DNA from: Bradyrhizobium sp. AZCC 2176
Lineage (GTDB): Bacteria > Pseudomonadota > Alphaproteobacteria > Rhizobiales > Xanthobacteraceae
DNA length: 64,000 bases
Assembly (NCBI RefSeq): GCF_036924645.1
Contig: NZ_JAZHRX010000001.1
Location: 868,001-932,000 of the forward strand
Reading direction: 5' to 3'
Shown: one piece after another, positions 30,655 to 39,417 of the stretch
Layout: every line of letters starts with the position of its first letter
Numbering within the stretch: position 1 is the stretch's first letter
Position numbers and translations under genes: made by a program
The notes under the pieces: model-generated
Seen by the model: only the letters and a program-made list of their open reading frames with translations
Databases searched by the model: none
Told to the model about the DNA's origin: nothing

Positions 30655-31524
30655 CCCTGACGCGCCTTCGGTTGACCCTGGCGAGCCGGAGCGAATTCGA
30701 TCGAGCGATCGCCGGCAACATCGTGCGAATACGGCTTTCAACTTCGTCCTGAACCAGGACTATCAGCGACTGAGCCGAAGCTGCCGGACCGAGCGCCCGC
30801 CGACACAAAAAACGGGGCGAATTCCGCAGCGTCTCGAACGACTTGCAGGATCGAGTCGTTTTCAAAACGAAAGCACCGCTGATCGAGTCGTTCTTAAGGT
30901 CAAGATCGAGTCGTTTTCAAAATGCAGGAATCAGCAAACTCAAGCACTTAGCCGAGTCGTTTTCAAAGTGTCCCCACACACACTTGTACGGACACTTTGA
31001 GAAAGACTCGATTTCCGCTTTAAGAACGACTCGATTTCGTTTTGAGAACGACTCGATCTCAGATCTTCCTGAAGGAACTTGCGAATTTCGCCTCGATTTT
31101 TTCGCCGATTCTGGAGTTCGAAAAACCGAGGGGTCAATTCAGTGTTCTTCTGTTTCCATACGCCTTGCATGTCCCCACTCCCGCCTAAGGCCGAGTTCAC
31201 CAGGTACAAGCCGTGAAAAAGCCGCTAATGAAGTTCGTGTTCCATGAGCAAGAAGTCGCCGCGGTCACCTTTCGTGCGATGGTGGAAATCGGGCGCGTCG
31301 TCCCCGCAGCTTGCGCTGACCCCGCGGCTCAGGCTGTTCGCATCAATGGGTATGAGACGCTCGAAGGCGGCATCGGCGATTTCAGCGGCGGCATCGCAGT
31401 CGCACGCCCGTTCAAGGGCAGCTATCGAGCAATGCGCCGCGGATGCGTGGCCAGCTGGATGCCTCGTTCCGGACAGGGGCGGTCCGGCTCGCGCAAGCGC
31501 CACGCCGACGTCCGGTTTTCCGCC
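30655..31524. repeat. Right end of the transposon-like unit, a second related left end, and unassigned DNA
   Basis: This 870-bp gap has three parts. First come inverted subterminal repeats and the terminal repeat of the unit (30852-30973). Then, 16 bp later, a new end in the left-end orientation (30990-31130) aligns with 26907-27045, with several substitutions. The rest (31131-31524) has overlapping frames on both strands, none with recognisable domains or a good start. No transposase fragment is seen. Confidence 0.6.
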
Positions 31525-31848
31525 TCAACGCATGTCATCCTTACCTTCCGGTACATAAATCATACGGCCATCCGGCAGCCGGTAGGTGATGCCGGCGCGG
31601 ATGCCCTCGCCCTCGCCGATGGAGCCGTTGGTTTGGTAGCGGGTCAGCTCGCGACCCTCCTTCACAGTTATCTTCATGTCGGCCTTGCCAGGGTTCTCGA
31701 CGACAACGACGCTCTGGTTCGAGAACGGATTGAGCGGATTGCGGACGATGATAATCATCAGCATCGCCACGACGACGAGAAAGACGTCGATCAGGTTGAC
31801 CAGCGAGAGGATCGGATCGTCGCTTTCGCCCTCTTCAAGGAAACGCAT
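31525..31848 (-). CDS. DUF2149 single-span membrane protein (ExbD-like position)
   Basis: A 107-residue protein with one N-terminal membrane helix (LSLVNLIDVFLVVVAMLMII) and a periplasmic tail containing VENPGKADMKITVKEG and GEGEGIRAGITYRLPDGRMI. This pattern matches DUF2149, found beside MotA/TolQ/ExbB-type proteins and CobN-like chelatases (for example HmuV in Bacteroidetes hmu operons, from memory). The topology resembles ExbD: short cytoplasmic N-terminus, one helix with an Asp (D21), then a periplasmic domain. Its ATG shares bases with the stop of the ExbB-like gene (TAATG). It is probably the second half of a proton-driven motor that energises the receptor or chelatase. Confidence 0.87.
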   Translation of the reverse strand: MRFLEEGESDDPILSLVNLIDVFLVVVAMLMIIIVRNPLNPFSNQSVVVVENPGKADMKITVKEGRELTRYQTNGSIGEGEGIRAGITYRLPDGRMIYVPEGKDDMR

Positions 31849-32324
31849 TAAGACACTCCCTTCTCGCGCTCGAAAGCACGCAACTCCTCGAGCAGCCAGC
31901 GGCGGCGCACCGTCAGGATAAAATAGGCTATGGAGGCGCTGATGAGCGCAAGGATGACCGCAGAGAAGGCCACCACGAAATTCTCGCCGACGCTGCGCGC
32001 ATCGCTGCGCGTCAGGGCGAGCAATGCTGGCCCCATCGGGATCATGGTCGCGACAAGTCCGAGCATGGGCGCACTTCGGGACACCACGCTCAGCCATTCC
32101 AGCCGCCGGAGAATCCAGATTTCGAGATCGTCGCTGACGGCGTTCGTCTTGCTCTGGTGCGCCGCAAGCTGCGACCGGTAAGTGCCGTGCCACCGTTGCC
32201 ACGCTTCCATGACGAACGCGCCCAGCGCGACAAAGGCGTAAAGCAGCGCGCTGACGATCAAGACTAAAACGGGAAAGAGGAAGAGCTTCGCGATCTCATA
32301 AAGAGCAGATTCAAACGTCGACAT
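31848..32324 (-). CDS. MotA/TolQ/ExbB-type proton channel protein
   Basis: A 158-residue inner-membrane protein with three hydrophobic segments (around residues 13-37, 83-105 and 118-140). The region SAPMLGLVATMIPMGPALLA followed by VAFSAVILALISASIAYFIL is the TolQ/ExbB core. It is shorter than ordinary ExbB (about 240 residues) because it lacks much of the cytoplasmic part. ATG 32324 overlaps the stop of the CobN-like gene (TAATG). With the DUF2149 protein it likely forms a dedicated energy-coupling pair; a TonB gene is not in the window. Confidence 0.87.
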   Translation of the reverse strand: MSTFESALYEIAKLFLFPVLVLIVSALLYAFVALGAFVMEAWQRWHGTYRSQLAAHQSKTNAVSDDLEIWILRRLEWLSVVSRSAPMLGLVATMIPMGPALLALTRSDARSVGENFVVAFSAVILALISASIAYFILTVRRRWLLEELRAFEREKGVS

Positions 32325-35300
32325 TAGGCATTTCCTAAAGCTGCCAAGCTGTTCCGGCGCCATTGCACGTAGAGGCCTGCGCCGAAGCAAGCCAGCATCA
32401 TGAGAAGCGCCATAGCACTGTGCCACCATGATCGGCTCTCCCCGGCCCCGGCGACGACCGGCTCAAGTACAGGACCGGTCACGGTCTGTGGAGGATTGAT
32501 CTCGGCCTGCTTGGCAGCGGCCGGCGGCGGCTGTTGTGACGGGCGCGCGATACCAAACCCGGCCCCCATCTGGTCGACGAAGGCTTTTGTCAGCTTCTCG
32601 CCCATGAGGACATTCTTTTGGGCCAACTCGTCGACGCGCGCGACCAACTCGCGGCGAGTGTGTTCCGGTGCATCCCAATAGCCTTTCCGAATGGCTTCGA
32701 TCATGCGTTCTATGATCTGGAGCTGCGCCGTCGGATTGTGTTGTTCAAACCAAGCTCCGAGCTTGAGATCGCGAATGTCGCGTATGAACGTGTCGTGCAC
32801 GGTTTGCCATTGGTCCGCACGCACCATATTGGGATCGACGACTTGCCAACCCCAAAGATTGTTCACGGCATTGAGGATTTCCAGAGTGCCGGCATAACCC
32901 TCTTTCTGTATCGTCGAGATCCAGTGTGGATTGAAATACCGCGAACGGGTTTCATCGGAGAGCAAACGTGCCGCCGATGTGATGCGCGCGGTATTTTCGC
33001 GAAGGTCCGCGATGTAGAGCGACGGTGAAGCGCCATCGAGGTGCCGGATCGCCAGCGACAAGCCACCGAGAAATTCGAACGGATGGTCTGTCGAGAGAAT
33101 GCCGTGCAGTTTGGAGGAACGCGACAGAACGGCGGCCTGGACGCCTTTGAGCTGCTCGGCGAACAAGTTGGTTTCACCATCTCCACGGATGCCCCAGAGC
33201 TTCGAGCCGTAGGCGTACTGCGTGCGGCCGAGGAACGCTTCGGCGAGGCTTGAATCCTTCTCCCACGACGCCGATTTCAACACGGCCTCCGGCAGGCCCG
33301 TGCCGTAGTCGCCCATGGCGTTGCTGAACATGCGCAGCCTAGCCAGTTGAAGCGCCCGTTCCCTGGGCTGGCCTTGAGCGACCAGGCGCTCGGCCGATGC
33401 GCGGGTGTTCTGGAACAAGGGATTGTCGCCCTCGTCGAGTTGCGCGAGCTGTTCGATCGCGTCCGCCAGCTTCCGCATGAAGCTGTCAAACTGGTCGCGA
33501 TAGACGCTGGTGATCTGCATCACGACGTCAATGCGCGGACGTCCGAGTTCCTGCCGCGGGATGATGGCGAGCGCCGCCAGGCGTCCACCGCTATTCCAGA
33601 CCGGCCTGAGCCCAAGCGCGTGAAGTATCTGGCTCTCGACGATGCCGAGATGCCGCATCGTCTCGGAGCCCCACATGCTGAAGGCGAGTTTGCGCGGTGT
33701 CTCGCCTTGGTGATCCTTGCGATAGGCATCAATTAGCTGCTGCAAGGCTTTCGCCCCGGCTTCGTGGGCCACGCGGGTCGGCACCTTGTCAGGCTCGAAG
33801 GCAAACAGGTTGCGTCCGCTTGCCATATCAGGATTGCGGATTGGATCGCCGCCCGCACCGGGAGGAACAAAGCCGCCGCCAAGCGCCAGGAGGAGGCCTT
33901 CGATCTCCCCGGGATGCTGAAGATTGAGATCGAGGCCGACCGCTCGTTTGATGGCGTCGGCAAGTTCCGAGTCGGCAAGGGTTTCGACCGGCACCCCTTC
34001 GCGAAGGTGGCGGCGGAGGAGCCTGTAAGGCGCGCTATCTTGCAGCGCCTTGAAGTCGACGGCGAAGAACTCTTCAGGCTCCGTGCCGAGCTTTTTGTAG
34101 AAGGGCTGCCCGAGTTGCTGCATGACCGTCGAAAGACGCTCATCCGGCGAAGACGGCTCACCGAAGGTGTGAAGCCCGAGCGGCATGGCGTGTTGGGCCA
34201 ATTCGTGCAGATGATCGTGTAGTTCCGACAGGAATTTCGGGAAGTCGCCGTCGATGGCTTTCTCGTCCCAGCCCATGTCGCGATGATAGTTATGTTTGAC
34301 GACGGCCTTTCGGATGTCTTCGCCGGTCTGTTCTTTCACCGCGCCGTTCTCGAGTTGCATGAATTCGTGGATCTTCGTATGCAGGTCGCGCAGCTCGTTA
34401 TAGAGGCCAGCGGGCGCGAAGGCCGGCGTCTGGTGACTAACCGTGACGGCGCGGCCGCGGCGTTTGGCCTGGATGGCTTCGGCAACATTGTCTTGAATGT
34501 AGGGATAGATCACCGGCATGTTGCCGACGGCCAGCATGGGATAATCGTGAACCGAAAGACCGCGATCTTTCCCGGGTGTCCATTCCTGCGTTCCATGAGT
34601 ACCGAGATGGATAAGCGCGTCCGCGCCCAGCGTCTCTCGCACATAGAGATACGTCGCAAGATAGGCGTGATCGGGCGGCTGCTTCGTGTCGTGATAATTT
34701 TCCCCTGGCCTTCCGCCGCGTGGCGGCTGCGGCATGATGGTGAGCTTCCCCACCTCGAAGCGCGGAATGACGAACTGCTTTTCGCCTCCGATATCGCGCA
34801 CGGCGGAGTGCTGCTCGGGCTCTCCCCATTTTGCCAAGAGCTCTGACTTCCGCTGTGCGGGCAGCGCGTCCAGCCACGAACGGTAGGCTCGAACGGGCAA
34901 CGTTCCGGCCAACCCACGCCCGCGCAAGGCATCCAGGGTCTCGGGCCGGTAGTAGCCTGCCAGCATGGCTTGTCCGGCTTCGATCAAATCGGCCTCACTT
35001 GTCGGCTTGACGGCATAACCCGCCTTCGCAAGCGCAGCCGTCATCTTCTCGAGGCTCCTTGGAATATTGAGGTTGGAGGCGGAGAAGTTCTTCTCGCCCG
35101 GCGGGTAGTTCCAGAACATCGCCGCGAGCTTCTTTTGATCAGCCGGCGTGTGACGCAGGGCGACAAGTCGTTCGAGTTTGCCGAGAAGCGCTTCGATCTG
35201 CTTTTGAATGGGAGCCGGCTCGCCATTGTGTAGCGCGTCGACCACCAGCGGATCGCTCGCACCCCATCCTTCGGGAACGGCAAGGAACGCTGCAGCGAGC

Positions 35301-36232
35301 GGCGCGGCCATGCCGCTTTCGGCCCGGTCCCACGCGTCAGCGTCGCCTTCGCGGTAGTTGACGACCTGGACGACCGGGATTCCGAGCTTGAGGAATTCCG
35401 CGCTGCGCGCTGAGCCGTTTTGCATGTGGGTTGCGATGACAAGCACGTCGGCCTTGGCGGGGACGAGCAGCTTTTCCAGCCCTTGCGGGTCGGCCGCCTC
35501 AAGCCAGAACGCCATCGGCAGCAATCCGCGATTCTCACTTTGGCGGATCATCGCGTCGACGACTTTTGTTTCCATATTCGCGATCAGGCCCGGATAGATC
35601 GCGATACCGATATGCCCTTTGGGTCTGGTGACCCGGCCTTCTGCCCAACGCAGGTAATCTGCGACGGACGTAAAGGCCGTAGGCGCGTCAGGGTGATAAA
35701 TGCCGGTCGAAGGAAGAGGGGTCGGCGACGCAATATGCGTGGGATCGCGGCTATCGCGTAAGGCGGCCCAGAATTCGAAAAGCGCTTTGAGATTTTCCTC
35801 CCCGCCGTGGCTGTAATGGGCCATCAGGCGACGCGCGATCAGCGGGGGGAGATTGCCGAAGGCCGGAGGTCCTCCACCGATCCGTATCCACGGTACCGCC
35901 GTGTCTTTCAATGCTGAGCCGACGCTTTCCTGGACGCGCGCCAGGTCCATCGGGCGCGGCGTGTCGAGAATGACCAGACCCGCGCCGCCGATCCAATCGG
36001 CGGGCGAGCCCGGTGTGCGGGCGACAAAGACACTTTCCAGCGCCAGTCCCTGCGCCCCCGCGAAACCCGCCAGCTTGTCGAGCTTTCCAGGAAGCACAAA
36101 GTCATCGGTGATGATTCGCACCACGTTCGTGCGTGTTGAAGCGTTCGGGCGTACATCCTGCGAAAAGGCCTCTCCCGCCCCGGCTACGAGGACAAAGGTC
36201 AGGAGCAACGCTGAAGCGAAATGGCGTCCCAC
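32324..36232 (-). CDS. Periplasm-facing, membrane-anchored CobN/HmuS-like chelatase
   Basis: A 1302-residue protein of the CobN/BchH family, which normally act as ATP-dependent cobalto- or magnesium-chelatase large subunits in the cytoplasm. The family hallmark is near residue 545 (IHLGTHGTQEWTPGK), with YPYIQDNVAEAIQAKRRGRA after it and the C-domain with FEFLGGLSLAIRHLDG. Unusually it begins with a Sec signal peptide (ASALLLTFVLVAGAGEAFSQ) and ends with a membrane helix (residues about 1269-1291) plus a basic tail, so the chelatase body should face the periplasm. No ATPase partners (CobS/T) are present. GTG 36232 has GAGGG 7 nt upstream, overlapping the receptor stop. HmuS of Bacteroidetes, a relative, removes iron from haem. 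Substrate here is unproven. Confidence 0.87.
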   Translation of the reverse strand: MGRHFASALLLTFVLVAGAGEAFSQDVRPNASTRTNVVRIITDDFVLPGKLDKLAGFAGAQGLALESVFVARTPGSPADWIGGAGLVILDTPRPMDLARVQESVGSALKDTAVPWIRIGGGPPAFGNLPPLIARRLMAHYSHGGEENLKALFEFWAALRDSRDPTHIASPTPLPSTGIYHPDAPTAFTSVADYLRWAEGRVTRPKGHIGIAIYPGLIANMETKVVDAMIRQSENRGLLPMAFWLEAADPQGLEKLLVPAKADVLVIATHMQNGSARSAEFLKLGIPVVQVVNYREGDADAWDRAESGMAAPLAAAFLAVPEGWGASDPLVVDALHNGEPAPIQKQIEALLGKLERLVALRHTPADQKKLAAMFWNYPPGEKNFSASNLNIPRSLEKMTAALAKAGYAVKPTSEADLIEAGQAMLAGYYRPETLDALRGRGLAGTLPVRAYRSWLDALPAQRKSELLAKWGEPEQHSAVRDIGGEKQFVIPRFEVGKLTIMPQPPRGGRPGENYHDTKQPPDHAYLATYLYVRETLGADALIHLGTHGTQEWTPGKDRGLSVHDYPMLAVGNMPVIYPYIQDNVAEAIQAKRRGRAVTVSHQTPAFAPAGLYNELRDLHTKIHEFMQLENGAVKEQTGEDIRKAVVKHNYHRDMGWDEKAIDGDFPKFLSELHDHLHELAQHAMPLGLHTFGEPSSPDERLSTVMQQLGQPFYKKLGTEPEEFFAVDFKALQDSAPYRLLRRHLREGVPVETLADSELADAIKRAVGLDLNLQHPGEIEGLLLALGGGFVPPGAGGDPIRNPDMASGRNLFAFEPDKVPTRVAHEAGAKALQQLIDAYRKDHQGETPRKLAFSMWGSETMRHLGIVESQILHALGLRPVWNSGGRLAALAIIPRQELGRPRIDVVMQITSVYRDQFDSFMRKLADAIEQLAQLDEGDNPLFQNTRASAERLVAQGQPRERALQLARLRMFSNAMGDYGTGLPEAVLKSASWEKDSSLAEAFLGRTQYAYGSKLWGIRGDGETNLFAEQLKGVQAAVLSRSSKLHGILSTDHPFEFLGGLSLAIRHLDGASPSLYIADLRENTARITSAARLLSDETRSRYFNPHWISTIQKEGYAGTLEILNAVNNLWGWQVVDPNMVRADQWQTVHDTFIRDIRDLKLGAWFEQHNPTAQLQIIERMIEAIRKGYWDAPEHTRRELVARVDELAQKNVLMGEKLTKAFVDQMGAGFGIARPSQQPPPAAAKQAEINPPQTVTGPVLEPVVAGAGESRSWWHSAMALLMMLACFGAGLYVQWRRNSLAALGNA

Positions 36233-36242
36233 GGGAATACCC

Positions 36243-38660
36243 TCAATAGAAACGCTTGGTGAAGCCTGCGTAGAAGGCGCGACCGGTGCCCGGATAAACT
36301 GACGGTGTGCCGGCGGCGATGTCTGCTGCCCGCAAGCTCGGAGTAAAGTCGCCCACATAGGCGACATCGGTGAGATTCCGTGCCTCGAACCATAGCGTGA
36401 GCGAATTATCGGGCGCTTTCCATCCCAGCTTCGCGCCATAGAGCGCATAAGCCGGCACGACGAAGGCATTGCCGCCCGAATTGTCGAAGGTGGTGTAGCG
36501 CTCGCCGATGTAGCGGATGTTGCCCGATACATAGAATCCGGAGGGGTGACGGTAGCCTAATTCGCCAAAGGCCTGATGCTTCGGAATGACAGGAAGCGTG
36601 CTGCTCCCGAACAGTGCATCATTGTCGAAACGGAAGTGGTTGAAGTTGTAGACGGCATTCAGGAAGACGTGGTCGCCGGGATTGAAGACATCCACGAACG
36701 GGCGGGTGCGGAAAGCCGTCTCGATCCCGTCGTGGATGGTGCGGTCGGCGTTGAAGGCCGCCTGACTTCCCGAGAGGCCGCAAGAGTATTGTCCGTTCAC
36801 TTGCGCTCGCTGGCCGGGGGTCAGGCGGGAAAGCGGGATGAGGCCAAGCGCGCATTGCGACAGAATCTCGTCGCGTAGCTGCATGTGATAGAGTGTTACA
36901 TCGTAATTGAAGCGGTCCCACCCGCCGCGCACACCGACCTCCGTCGTCCACGCTTTCTGCATGCGAAGCCGATCCGTCAGGGCGAGTTGCACGTTCGGAT
37001 TGCTGAATCCGTTCACGGTCTGCTCGATGCCGAGCAGCGAGAAGATGTCACCGCTGTTAGGCACCTCGGTGCTGCGCGAGATATTGCCGTAAAGGAAATG
37101 GTTGGAGAGGTACTCCCAGTTTGCGCCAAACTTCGGATTGACGGCCTCAAATTCGCGATCGTAGTTGCGGCGGCCAGTCGAACTGCCCGGGCCAAACAGG
37201 CCACCGGCGATGACGGGACCGCTGTACTCGTCTTTCAGCGTGCGATTGGTCCAGAAGGCCTGCAAACCGGTGAAGAGGTGCACGCGCGGCAAGACTTCGA
37301 GTGCTGCTTCCGCGTAACTTTCGTGCAGCCATGACGTGAAGGCGTCGTTGTAGACGAGCGCGGCCTTCTGATTGCCCGACGATCCGGGCACCCACTGGAA
37401 GTCCCGATATCGGGCGGTCTCATAAGTCGGGCGGTAGCCGGCGACCAACTCCAGCGGCTTGCCAGCGATTTCCCCCTTCTGTTCCATGCGGAAGGAGACG
37501 CCATGATCCTTCCACGCCACATCGACGATGCCGGCGCGCGGCGACGGTAGATGATCGAAGGCTGTTGCAATGTAATACGGCGAGATCTCGATCGACGTCG
37601 ATCCTAGCCGGAACAAGGTCTTGTTTACGATACGGGCGTAGTCAAAATCGGCACGCAAATTATAGGGGAACGACGTGTTGCCAGGGTCATATCCGCTTCG
37701 GCGATAGATCGGGAGTTGATTGAGTGGAATACTGGTCGGCAATTCCTGCTTGTTGCTTCCGATCGCAACATAAGTGCGGCTGTCGACGATGTCGTTCGGA
37801 CGCCAGCCGACATTGCCGCTGAAGCGCTTCGTATCATTCTGCGAAAAGTATTCGTACCCCTTGTTGTGATAGGCGTTCGTCTGAAGATAGTAGTCGAAAT
37901 TGTCCTTGGCTCCGCCGTATTCGAGCTGACCCTGCAGATTTCCGTAGCTTCCGAACGCGCCGGAGATCGCTGCACCTGGCGCAGTGAGGCCCGTCTTGGA
38001 GACGAGATTGATAGCGCCGCCGGTGGCGAGCGCGCCATAGCGCAGGCTGTTCGCGCCACGATAGACCTCGATGTAATCCACCGCCTTGAGATCGAAGATC
38101 GACGGTGTATTGCCGCTTTCGATGCGGCCTAGCGGTACCCCGTCGATGAAGGCGCGCACGCCGCGACCGCTGCGCGGCCCCGTTTGCGACGAGTCACTGC
38201 CACGCATCGAAATCGTGCCCTGCCCGTTTTCGCCTTTGTCGGTGACGTAGACTCCAGGCGTTTGCTCGAGCGCTTCGCGAATGTTCGCCTGATTGCCCGG
38301 GTCCTGTTGTGTAACGGAAACCACCGCCTCGGCGCCCGGCCTGCGCAGGAAACGCTCGCGCTGGGCTTCGAAAGGCGCCGGATTGTTCGGGATCTCGCCC
38401 CGCGGAATTGGCAGTGCGGAGCCAGCCACGCGGCCGGCGGGGCGACTGCGAGCCGCAGTCGTTCGGGGCGCGGGACGCTGCGCGGGCGCCTGTACGGTGA
38501 TCGTCTCAAGAAGAACAGGATTTGCGGGGGGAGCGGCCGCCTCTTGTGCCTGAATGGAACCGGCACCAAAACCCACCAAATGTGCAACCAAACCCGCACT
38601 AAATCGACCCGCCCGCCCGTTTTTTGACCGACTCCCCCTCAAATCGCCCCACAACTTCAC
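36243..38660 (-). CDS. TonB-dependent outer-membrane receptor
   Basis: An 805-residue outer-membrane transporter with a GTG start at 38660 (GGGGA 6 nt upstream). After an N-terminal export signal (up to about residue 40, ...GSIQAQEAAA), there is a TonB-box-like segment (LETITVQAPAQ), a plug domain (ETPGVYVTDKGENGQGTISM, then GVRAFIDGVPLGRIESGN, VYRGANSLRYGALATGGAIN), and a 22-strand-type barrel ending in the aromatic terminus KRFY. It is the first gene of the receptor / chelatase / ExbB / DUF2149 unit, with the chelatase start 10 bp after its stop. The ligand is not identifiable; haem or porphyrin, cobalamin-like compounds and zinc chelates all fit the neighbourhood. Confidence 0.92.
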   Translation of the reverse strand: MKLWGDLRGSRSKNGRAGRFSAGLVAHLVGFGAGSIQAQEAAAPPANPVLLETITVQAPAQRPAPRTTAARSRPAGRVAGSALPIPRGEIPNNPAPFEAQRERFLRRPGAEAVVSVTQQDPGNQANIREALEQTPGVYVTDKGENGQGTISMRGSDSSQTGPRSGRGVRAFIDGVPLGRIESGNTPSIFDLKAVDYIEVYRGANSLRYGALATGGAINLVSKTGLTAPGAAISGAFGSYGNLQGQLEYGGAKDNFDYYLQTNAYHNKGYEYFSQNDTKRFSGNVGWRPNDIVDSRTYVAIGSNKQELPTSIPLNQLPIYRRSGYDPGNTSFPYNLRADFDYARIVNKTLFRLGSTSIEISPYYIATAFDHLPSPRAGIVDVAWKDHGVSFRMEQKGEIAGKPLELVAGYRPTYETARYRDFQWVPGSSGNQKAALVYNDAFTSWLHESYAEAALEVLPRVHLFTGLQAFWTNRTLKDEYSGPVIAGGLFGPGSSTGRRNYDREFEAVNPKFGANWEYLSNHFLYGNISRSTEVPNSGDIFSLLGIEQTVNGFSNPNVQLALTDRLRMQKAWTTEVGVRGGWDRFNYDVTLYHMQLRDEILSQCALGLIPLSRLTPGQRAQVNGQYSCGLSGSQAAFNADRTIHDGIETAFRTRPFVDVFNPGDHVFLNAVYNFNHFRFDNDALFGSSTLPVIPKHQAFGELGYRHPSGFYVSGNIRYIGERYTTFDNSGGNAFVVPAYALYGAKLGWKAPDNSLTLWFEARNLTDVAYVGDFTPSLRAADIAAGTPSVYPGTGRAFYAGFTKRFY

Positions 38661-38680
38661 GATCAGTCCCCAACTACGTA

Positions 38681-38695
38681 ATGTTATAACATAAC
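38681..38695. promoter_or_regulatory. Zur-like dyad in the receptor / DUF1007 divergent promoter
   Basis: The sequence ATGTTATAACATAAC contains a perfect 12-bp palindrome (ATGTTATAACAT) and, read as 13 bp at 38683-38695, matches the alphaproteobacterial Zur box core GTTATAnTATAAC at all but one position. It lies 21 bp upstream of the receptor start and about 50 bp upstream of the DUF1007 start. No cobalamin riboswitch fits in the short gap. Regulator identity is inferred from the motif only. Confidence 0.55.
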
Positions 38696-38745
38696 GTCTC
38701 CGTATCGGACAATGATGTCAAGGTCAACGTATGAGGGAGTGGACG

Positions 38746-39417
38746 ATGGGCTATGAAGGTTTAAGAAGCATCGCGCGGTACGTGCGCCGACTGAGAAAGA
38801 GCCTCATTGCGGGCACGGCAGTATTGCTCGCTCTGGTCGATCCTGCCGACGCGCACCCGCACGTATGGGTGACGATGCAAAGCGAGATCGTTTACGCGGA
38901 AGACGGCACGGTAACGGAGATCCGCCACCGGTGGACCTTCGACGAGATGTTCTCGACCTTCGCAGTGCAAGGCCTCGATAAGCGCAAGAAGGGAGAGTTT
39001 TCTCGGGAGGATCTCGCCGGCCTTGCCCAAGTAAATGTAGAGTCTTTGCAGGAGTACCGTTACTTCACTTTCGTGTGCTCGTCGTCCAAGCGCGTCTTGC
39101 TTCAAAAGCCAACCAACTACTGGCTGGATTACAACGACGGCCTGCTGACGCTGAACTTCACCCTTCCATTGAAGACACCGGTAAGCGCGCAAACGCTCAG
39201 CCTTGAATTCTACGATCCCGTCGGCTTTGTCGATTTCACCCTCAGCGAGCGCAATGCGATGAAGCTCATCGGCGCGCCGGCCGCCTGTAAACTCAACATT
39301 CGCAAGCCGCCCGCGGGACCGTCGACATCGACCCTCAGCGAGGCATTCTTCAATTCGCTTACGGCATCGAGCAACTGGGGTGAGCAATTCGCCAACAAGA
39401 TTACGATTCAGTGCTGA
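38746..39417 (+). CDS. DUF1007 periplasmic protein, divergent from the receptor operon
   Basis: A 223-residue exported protein. The signal region (IAGTAVLLALVDPADA) is followed by HPHVWVTMQSEIVYAEDGTV, the hallmark DUF1007 start with a His-x-His close to the mature N-terminus. ATG 38746 has GAGGGAG 8 nt upstream; 38731 is an alternative. DUF1007 proteins are usually coupled to a NicO/RcnA-type nickel/cobalt or zinc transporter and are thought to handle metal in the periplasm. No such transporter is adjacent here. The shared Zur-like site suggests a role with the receptor/chelatase unit in metal homeostasis. Confidence 0.8.
   Translation: MGYEGLRSIARYVRRLRKSLIAGTAVLLALVDPADAHPHVWVTMQSEIVYAEDGTVTEIRHRWTFDEMFSTFAVQGLDKRKKGEFSREDLAGLAQVNVESLQEYRYFTFVCSSSKRVLLQKPTNYWLDYNDGLLTLNFTLPLKTPVSAQTLSLEFYDPVGFVDFTLSERNAMKLIGAPAACKLNIRKPPAGPSTSTLSEAFFNSLTASSNWGEQFANKITIQC

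What the first reader, a model, noticed from the sequence alone, without database searches (positions are those of the whole stretch)
31525..38660. Receptor / CobN-like chelatase / ExbB-like / DUF2149 unit: a dedicated metal or metallo-tetrapyrrole uptake system
Four genes in order on the minus strand encode an outer-membrane TonB-dependent receptor, a CobN/HmuS-like chelatase, a short ExbB/TolQ protein and a DUF2149 protein. From recall, the same set occurs in the Bacteroidetes hmu operon (HmuR-HmuS-HmuU-HmuV), where HmuS removes iron from haem, and a similar receptor/CobN-like set in Pseudomonas aeruginosa (PA1922-PA1925 region) responds to zinc shortage. In an alphaproteobacterium the ligand and reaction appear open. 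The set could import a metal chelate, strip its metal in the periplasm, and use its own proton motor.
Basis: partly seen in the sequence, partly recalled or inferred. Interest (0 to 1): 0.88.

Follow-up and report, generated by a model that had tools for sequence, protein, structure and literature searches.

The report
Zinc-starvation dechelatase operon with proton motor
A bacterium carries a zinc-starvation operon that probably imports a zinc-containing compound, pulls the zinc out of it in the space between its two membranes, and may use a membrane proton motor to drive that extraction rather than only the import.

Summary
Four tightly packed minus-strand genes (31525-38660) encode a TonB-dependent receptor, a probably secreted, membrane-anchored CobN/HmuS-type chelatase, a TolQ/ExbB protein and a DUF2149 protein. 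The promoter, shared with a divergent DUF1007 gene, holds a palindrome found at three other places in the 7.1-Mb genome; two stand upstream of znuCBA and a COG0523 zinc GTPase. By published annotation this is the gene set of P. aeruginosa PA1922-PA1925. The chelatase is the genome's only CobN-family match. It keeps the two facing histidines and the Glu of the haem dechelatase HmuS, and the His (not the Met) of HmuS's second haem site; cobalt-type relatives have Asp at the key position. A tree test rejects a common branch with HmuS, so the likeness looks convergent. Relatives sit under Zur-type boxes, cobalamin riboswitches, haem operons or a nickel-hydrogenase cluster. CobN-TolQ-DUF2149 also occurs in methanogens without an outer membrane, and twice beside a separate ExbB-ExbD-TonB set. 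So the motor may drive the chelatase, not only the receptor. Dechelation, ligand and motor target remain inferred. New variant of a known kind.

The parts
36243..38660 (-). TonB-dependent outer-membrane receptor (805 aa), first gene
   Evidence: Pfam plug + barrel; 71 homologues found, of the few with an organism name most are Rhizobiales; 12 of 51 closer family members share a contig length with one of the 120 listed CobN-like proteins
32324..36232 (-). CobN/HmuS-type class I chelatase (1302 aa), signal-like N-terminus, C-terminal transmembrane helix
   Evidence: Pfam 983 bits; only PF02514 match in the genome; class I chelatase fold of residues 24-1220; C-terminal hydrophobic segment
34595..34597 (-). 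His546 codon (= HmuS His538), motif HLGTHG
33074..33088 (-). Asp1049-His1050..Glu1053 (= HmuS Asp1208-His1209..Glu1212), motif LSTDHPFEFLGG
   Evidence: His and Glu in 120 of 120 listed homologues (115 by pattern, 5 by eye)
35426..35428 (-). His269 codon (= HmuS His254, head/neck haem ligand)
   Evidence: His in 29 of 29 aligned zinc-branch rows; unaligned motif search 113 of 120
32360..32416 (-). C-terminal transmembrane helix of the CobN-like protein
   Evidence: hydropathy, coordinates
31848..32324 (-). TolQ/ExbB-class proton-channel subunit (158 aa)
   Evidence: Pfam 27.5 bits; family profile matches solved TolQ at 6.9e-11; Thr93 invariant in 16 aligned rows
31525..31848 (-). DUF2149 protein (107 aa), one transmembrane helix with Asp21 (NLID motif), probable ExbD/TolR-like partner
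   Evidence: Pfam 88 bits; NLxD in 120 of 120 listed homologues; weak profile match to the ExbD/TolR helix
38678..38695 (.). Zur-type operator GTAATGTTATAACATAAC, between the receptor gene and DUF1007
38731..39417 (+). Divergent DUF1007 protein; probably co-regulated through the same operator
   Evidence: Pfam 207 bits

Best explanation
A Zur-repressed zinc-acquisition operon. When zinc is short, Zur leaves the operator and the four genes are made. The receptor brings a zinc chelate, possibly a zinc tetrapyrrole, into the periplasm. The anchored CobN-like protein binds it between His546 and His1050 and releases Zn2+, which ZnuABC takes in. The TolQ-DUF2149 pair converts proton flow into movement of the CobN-like protein through its C-terminal helix, replacing the ATP motor (CobS/CobT, ChlI/ChlD) of the cytoplasmic cousins. 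Shown here: the gene set, operator, zinc-regulon context, residue pattern, fold and recurring partners. Inferred: Zur binding, ligand, dechelation, route of Zn2+, and the motor's target. Rough step estimates: zinc control 0.9; dechelation 0.55; motor acting on the chelatase 0.4.
For: Zinc: the operator 18-mer has only three other sites within 3 mismatches in 7.1 Mb, one before znuC-znuB-znuA-COG0523 and one before a second COG0523 GTPase. A matrix built from published Paracoccus Zur sites scores it 22.3 bits, beside 22.8 for the genome's own znuC site, with 0 of 146 background windows as high. A Zur-like regulator is encoded. Five of six scored zinc-branch loci have a box of 15.4 bits or more before the operon; two also adjoin a COG0523 gene. 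PA1922-PA1925, the same gene set by published annotation, is Zur-controlled. Dechelatase: HmuS His538, His1209 and Glu1212 equivalents. Motor: the block without an outer membrane, without a detected receptor, beside a second, canonical motor in two loci; TolQ class; C-terminal anchor; canonical TonB sets elsewhere in the genome.
Against: No biochemistry. The Azospirillum zinc-branch locus has no box. HmuS Met79 is Pro here and Ser1014, Gln1198 and Trp1202 of the propionate site differ, so the ligand need not be a porphyrin. Only 3 of 18 archaeal DUF2149 regions hold a CobN gene and some adjoin large surface-type proteins, so the motor is not exclusive to chelatases. One of 23 bacterial regions has TolQ-DUF2149 without CobN. 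A Cupriavidus CobN-like has the anchor but no TolQ or DUF2149 was detected in its 15-kb region. DUF2149-ExbD kinship is weak (hhalign 22.7%). CobT is encoded elsewhere in the genome. Published haem dechelation ran in lysed cells with NADH and without added ATP (PMC12583661), so a motor may not be needed for catalysis.
Confidence: 0.5

Rival explanations
1. TolQ-DUF2149 is a dedicated ExbB-ExbD pair that energises only the neighbouring receptor; the chelatase needs no motor.
For: This is how HmuU/HmuV are drawn in PMC12583661 and how PA1924 is read in PMC4542158; a receptor is the first gene here and receptor-like stretches were found in many bacterial relatives' regions.
Against: Methanogens carry the block without an outer membrane; Trichlorobacter and L040/L232 have exbB-exbD-tonB in the same gene run; the Comamonadaceae block has no receptor detected in the 15-kb region; no TonB gene in this operon, and three TonB genes elsewhere.
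Confidence: 0.35
2. The CobN-like protein is a high-affinity periplasmic zinc-chelate binding protein or chaperone, not an enzyme.
For: Head and neck domains of this fold resemble periplasmic binding proteins (PMC12583661 passage); no activity of PA1923 was reported in the passages seen.
Against: His and Glu of the catalytic site are conserved in 120 of 120 listed homologues.
Confidence: 0.3
3. Haem-iron uptake, as hmu in Bacteroidota.
For: His538/His1209/Glu1212/His254 equivalents; HmuS is the best solved sequence match, 401 bits against 374 for CobN.
Against: Zinc-type operator; the packed operon holds no HmuY or HmuT gene; Met79 is Pro; tree test rejects a clade with HmuS, p 1.7e-5.
Confidence: 0.07
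4. Cobalt insertion or B12 remodelling (true CobN).
For: NCBIfam names it CobN, above its cut-off; CobT is in the genome; distant relatives are under cobalamin riboswitches.
Against: No cobalamin riboswitch at Rfam's threshold in the window; C-terminal anchor absent from the four canonical CobN compared; His/Glu instead of Asp/Gln.
Confidence: 0.05

Closest known systems
Pseudomonas aeruginosa PA1922-PA1925
   Same: Receptor, CobN-like, ExbB/ExbD-like and DUF2149 genes; Zur control (PMC4542158, PMC8531726, PMC9431628 passages)
   Different: Host lineage; receptor not compared; here the operator also faces DUF1007. PA1923 itself was not fetched; Pseudomonas-type homologues (P0057, P0086, P0102) fall in the same branch.
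Bacteroidota hmuYRSTUV (HmuS haem dechelatase, PDB 9d26)
   Same: Chelatase fold, two facing His plus Glu, TolQ and DUF2149 partners
   Different: Iron/haem regime, HmuY and HmuT present, Met79; a separate branch of the tree
Cobalamin-riboswitch CobN-TolQ-DUF2149 loci
   Same: Same three-gene core
   Different: Asp at the His1209 position, no His254, riboswitch control
CobN and ChlH/BchH (metal insertion)
   Same: Fold and the His538 motif
   Different: No C-terminal anchor in the four CobN and one BchH compared, ATP-driven partners (established knowledge), other residues at 1209/1212 in CobN
TolQ-TolR / ExbB-ExbD motors
   Same: Channel subunit is clearly TolQ class
   Different: DUF2149 is only weakly similar to ExbD/TolR, over the helix alone

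Membership tests
HmuS haem dechelatase | Class I chelatase fold | tested here: met
HmuS haem dechelatase | His538 and His1209/Glu1212 motifs | tested here: met
   (LSTDHPFEFLGG here, LSLDHxxEFMGG in HmuS)
HmuS haem dechelatase | Met79 + His254 haem site | tested here: not met
   His present, Met replaced by Pro
HmuS haem dechelatase | hmuY-R-S-T-U-V operon | tested here: not met
   The packed four-gene operon has no room for HmuY or HmuT genes; such genes elsewhere in the genome were not searched
HmuS haem dechelatase | Same branch of the tree | tested here: not met
   AU p 1.7e-5 (28 rows, LG+G4, HmuS on a long branch)
CobN cobaltochelatase | No membrane anchor | tested here: not met
   C-terminal hydrophobic helix; four canonical CobN and one BchH lack it
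CobN cobaltochelatase | CobS/CobT partners and B12 genes alongside | tested here: not met
   None among the neighbouring ORFs scanned; a CobT lies elsewhere in the genome, CobS not searched
CobN cobaltochelatase | NCBIfam CobN model | tested here: met
   NF004644 1854 bits, cut-off 1248; the other CobN models are below their cut-offs
PA1922-PA1925-type Zur operon | Four-gene set | tested here: met
PA1922-PA1925-type Zur operon | Zur-type operator | tested here: met
   (sequence only; Zur binding not tested)
PA1922-PA1925-type Zur operon | Orthology to PA1923 itself | not tested
   Sequence not fetched; Pseudomonas-type homologues lie in the zinc branch
ExbB-ExbD/TolQ-TolR motor | TolQ/ExbB-family channel subunit | tested here: met
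ExbB-ExbD/TolQ-TolR motor | ExbD/TolR-family subunit | tested here: inconclusive
   hhalign 22.7% on the Asp helix; PDB TolR helix E 0.71, below an unrelated designed protein at 4.7e-6
ExbB-ExbD/TolQ-TolR motor | Proton-driven mechanical work | not testable with these tools
   needs experiment

The most novel reading that the evidence does not exclude
CobN-TolQ-DUF2149 is a general proton-driven metal-extraction machine of cell envelopes: the proton motive force replaces the AAA+ ATPase of cytoplasmic chelatases, receptors are swapped to suit the ligand, and the metal is set by one site (His...Glu for Fe and Zn, Asp for Co and perhaps Ni), with the His form evolved separately in haem and zinc branches. 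The window holds the zinc version.
Probability: 0.28. Interest if true: 0.85.

Novelty: new variant of a known kind. Interest (0 to 1): 0.62.

Why it matters
PA1922-PA1925 is among the strongly induced zinc-starvation operons of P. aeruginosa, and in the passages seen its CobN-like gene is explained only by speculation about cobalt or about zinc replacing cobalt (PMC4542158, PMC11761036). Reading it as a zinc relative of the haem dechelatase makes one enzyme assay and two point mutants decisive. If the motor drives the chelatase, it would be a use of proton motive force for pulling metals from chelates not described in the papers read here, and would give a role to DUF2149 and to some of the unassigned CobN-like genes of methanogens.

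Tried and rejected
True cobaltochelatase and haem uptake were considered and rejected (see rivals). One branch for HmuS and the zinc group was tested and rejected (LG+G4 without the mixture model, groups chosen after the tree was seen); the same test on 52 rows with the mixture model did not finish. A cobalamin riboswitch in the window was sought and not found at Rfam's threshold. A sigma-70 promoter scan of the operator region found none. The structure model confirms the fold but does not discriminate HmuS from CobN. A literature search for zincphyrin, zinc coproporphyrin and zincophore (two of three terms) gave nothing, so the tetrapyrrole ligand stays a guess. DUF2149 hits in L057 and L058 were below the family cut-off; L057's aligns with TolR/ExbD, L058's was not examined further; both were left out of the 23 bacterial regions L034-L056.

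Dropped rows: L190 (same gene as L171) and two non-CobN ORFs from the trees; ORFs under 880 aa from the residue table; L229 and L221_5458 from the tree; rows thinned to 28; L037 (truncated CobN) from all residue counts; L035, L037, L053, L143, L144, L221 and L222 were not scored for operators. Only 28 of the 80 methanogen loci kept were searched.
Full report
THE THING ITSELF. Four minus-strand genes lie head to tail at 31525-38660. Pfam identifies a TonB-dependent receptor, a CobN/Mg-chelatase (983 bits), a MotA/TolQ/ExbB protein and a DUF2149 protein. The chelatase starts with GTG 10 nt after the receptor's stop; the two following junctions are TAATG overlaps. The chelatase is the only PF02514 match in the 7,146,351-base genome. 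The set is sporadic: DUF2149 was found in 3 of 297 genomes of the order (2 over the family cut-off), 9 of 385 of the class (7 over) and 17 of 398 of the phylum (all over), the window's own genome counted each time, and in none of the 9 other same-genus genomes examined.

ZINC. Between the operon and the divergent DUF1007 gene lies GTAATGTTATAACATAAC (38678-38695). Within 3 mismatches the whole genome holds three other sites (the reversed control pattern gave 2 + 1 matches). One precedes znuC, znuB, znuA, a His-rich COG0523 GTPase and a WD40-type protein (znuB and WD40 named by eye). One precedes a second COG0523 GTPase with a DUF2946 gene on the other side. The third lies near an NMT1-type ABC transporter, target unclear. 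Published Zur sites of Paracoccus, as seen in passages of PMC5387054, have the same form, and the motif used for Caulobacter is GTTA-N5-TAAC (PMC4176598 passages). A matrix built only from the Paracoccus sites gives the operator 22.3 bits, znuC 22.8 and COG0523 21.1, with no background window as high (0 of 146, 120 and 121). The genome encodes three Fur-family proteins: an Irr above its cut-off, a Fur-like one below, and one whose best family is Zur (91 bits for the fragment scanned, cut-off 167).

RELATIVES UNDER ZINC CONTROL. Of six zinc-branch loci scored (window, L036, L038, L039, L048, L142), five have boxes of 15.4-22.3 bits before the operon; for L039, 4 of 141 background windows score as high. 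L142 (Azospirillum brasilense plasmid, no receptor directly upstream) has none. L036 and L038 also carry a COG0523 GTPase beside the operon. Of 19 other scored loci, 18 have at most 11.0 bits; the exception is L047 (16.5), whose chelatase has lost the active-site residues. L034, sister to the zinc branch, has 8.6. L037, with a truncated CobN, has a Zur-like palindrome near its receptor and was not classified. In P. aeruginosa, passages of PMC4542158 give 147-, 122-, 45- and 56-fold induction of PA1922-PA1925 in a znuA mutant and call the operon's role undetermined; PMC8531726 reports Zur binding to the PA1922 promoter, even without added metal (passage); PMC9431628 lists PA1925 as DUF2149 (passage).

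ACTIVE SITE. The HmuS paper (PMC12583661, sections 5, 8, 14 and 23 plus passages) names His538, His1209 and Glu1212 in the central cavity and Met79/His254 at the head/neck haem site. The window protein has His546, His1050, Glu1053 and His269 in these places; Met79 is Pro. The His1209 and Glu1212 equivalents are present in 120 of 120 listed close homologues, the best 120 of 319 (115 by pattern, 5 by eye from the printed stretches). His254 is present in 29 of 29 zinc-branch rows aligned; an unaligned motif search finds it in 113 of 120. Among the other CobN-family rows, canonical CobN and BchH set aside, 27 distinct rows have Asp at 1209; 26 of them stand near TolQ-DUF2149 or in DUF2149-bearing archaea, and for one (L221_5458, Cupriavidus) no motor was detected. 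Rows without Asp: the two HmuS (His), L034 (His, no His254), L229 (degenerate), and two anchorless archaeal proteins, L186 and L188 (His). The four canonical CobN have Asp (3) or Gly (1); BchH has His. On a tree the zinc branch is one clade (SH-aLRT 100, quick method), inside a group of Asp-type proteobacterial proteins. Forcing it together with HmuS is rejected (p 1.7e-5; with L034, 2.8e-6; LG+G4 model, 28 rows, HmuS on a long branch, groups named after the first tree was seen). State changes on the 52-row tree: 3 for 1209, 2 for 254. So the shared residues look convergent, though repeated loss is not excluded.

OTHER METAL REGIMES. Of 23 bacterial regions scanned, 10 hold a cobalamin riboswitch. 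In seven (L040, L049, L050, L052, L054, L055, L056) it lies directly upstream of a receptor or CobN gene; in L049, L050, L054 and L055 that receptor is some kilobases from the CobN block, so one operon is not shown. In L037 it precedes cobalamin-type genes (by eye) divergent from the receptor, in L051 other genes upstream of CobN, and in L036 a MetE-like gene (by eye), unrelated. Two Bacteroidota records show HmuY-receptor-CobN-TolQ-DUF2149, with a further gene between CobN and TolQ. In Runella the set is embedded in hydrogenase maturation genes hypF and hypCDE, with a gene weakly like NicO, below its cut-off: one locus only, suggestive of nickel. The window's receptor matches the receptors of L038, L039 and L048 only over stretches of 121-126 residues at 29-31% identity, while the chelatases are 48-56% identical. 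Its own receptor family (71 hits) travels with the chelatase: 12 of 51 closer members share a contig length with a listed CobN-like (contig length is a proxy, and only 120 CobN-likes were listed). So receptors change while the core stays.

THE MOTOR. Published accounts give HmuU/HmuV to the receptor (PMC12583661) and read PA1924 likewise (PMC4542158). Facts that argue for the chelatase as target: (1) DUF2149 occurs in 13 of 28 methanogen genomes searched, 10 of those 13 have a CobN-family gene, a TolQ homologue lies in 17 of 18 DUF2149 regions, and CobN in 3 of 18, in the order DUF2162-TolQ-DUF2149-CobN or CobN-DUF2162-TolQ-DUF2149; none of three receptor queries hit there, and methanogens have no outer membrane (established knowledge). 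PMC9425974 independently notes a DUF2149-TolQ link in methanogens (passage). (2) Trichlorobacter lovleyi pGLOV01 has the block followed directly by exbB, exbD and tonB, and L040/L232, under a cobalamin riboswitch, has receptor-DUF2162-TolQ-DUF2149-CobN followed on the same strand by ExbB-, ExbD- and TonB-like stretches. (3) A Comamonadaceae plasmid has TolQ-DUF2149-CobN with no receptor annotated or detected in the 15-kb region. (4) The window genome has four ExbD and three TonB genes elsewhere, three in nearby pairs. (5) The motor-linked chelatases end in a hydrophobic helix (17-residue mean 1.43 or more), and four canonical CobN, one BchH and two anchorless archaeal proteins do not (1.26 or less). 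The N-terminal measure did not discriminate, and the anchored Cupriavidus protein without a detected motor is an exception. Facts against: most archaeal pairs are not beside CobN and three (L177, L179, L181) adjoin large surface-type proteins (by eye); one of 23 bacterial regions lacks CobN (L035); dechelation by HmuS went without added ATP in lysed cells. The channel subunit is TolQ class; DUF2149 as an ExbD equivalent is inconclusive.

STRUCTURE. The AlphaFold model of residues 24-1220 (30 sequences, mean pLDDT 80.9, pTM 0.61) has the class I chelatase fold, without favouring HmuS or CobN.

NOVELTY. Of 160 papers holding two of PA1923, HmuS, dechelatase, BtuS and Zur, the 30 listed show none that pairs PA1923 with HmuS, dechelatase or BtuS; the remaining 130 were not seen. 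Caulobacter and Paracoccus Zur papers and a Zur review had no occurrence of cobN in the main text. The idea that CobN-like 'BtuS' proteins salvage metalloporphyrins is older (PMC6460266 passage). The operon type is known; the zinc-dechelatase reading, the residue pattern and the motor-chelatase coupling are, as far as seen, new.

Noticed in passing
window 30846-31060: Seven roughly 22-nt repeats (consensus near GATCGAGTCGTTTTCAAAA), four in one direction and three inverted, just downstream of the operon.
   Followed up: no
L047/L229 (G825:C18): A Zur-like box before a receptor-TolQ-DUF2149-CobN set whose CobN has lost the catalytic His and Asp/His residues: a possible non-catalytic version.
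   Followed up: no
L168-L170, L173, L174, L176-L183: In many methanogen regions the TolQ-DUF2149 pair stands apart from CobN; in L177, L179 and L181 it is beside very large surface-type proteins (by eye). The motor may have other clients.
   Followed up: partly
L040/L232 (G878:C106): Riboswitch, receptor, DUF2162, TolQ, DUF2149, CobN and then ExbB-, ExbD- and TonB-like stretches in one run: two motors side by side.
   Followed up: partly
L221 (Cupriavidus campinensis plasmid): An anchored CobN-like and an anchorless CobN in tandem, with no TolQ or DUF2149 detected in 15 kb.
   Followed up: no
G1024, G1025: Two archaeal genomes (reached through Methanopyri and Euryarchaeota MAG records) give 11 and 8 CobN-family matches each, some of them fragments of one gene.
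   Followed up: no
G000:C1:4170146 (L060): A near-perfect Zur-type palindrome near an NMT1-type ABC transporter with no evident zinc gene.
   Followed up: partly
G000:C1:2914905: A CobT gene in a genome whose only CobN-family protein is the predicted periplasmic one; Caulobacter, a control genome, also rings for CobT but not for CobN.
   Followed up: no
P0250: Rhodopseudomonas palustris has a receptor 60% identical to the window's, with no contig-length match to a listed CobN-like (120 of 319 listed).
   Followed up: no
L225-L228, L222: A gammaproteobacterial branch in the order TolQ-DUF2149-CobN with Asp at 1209 and neither a Zur box (where scored) nor a riboswitch (where scanned): regime unknown.
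   Followed up: partly
L035 (G422:C268): TolQ-DUF2149 without a CobN hit in the 16-kb stretch, with a 1920-aa ORF further along.
   Followed up: no
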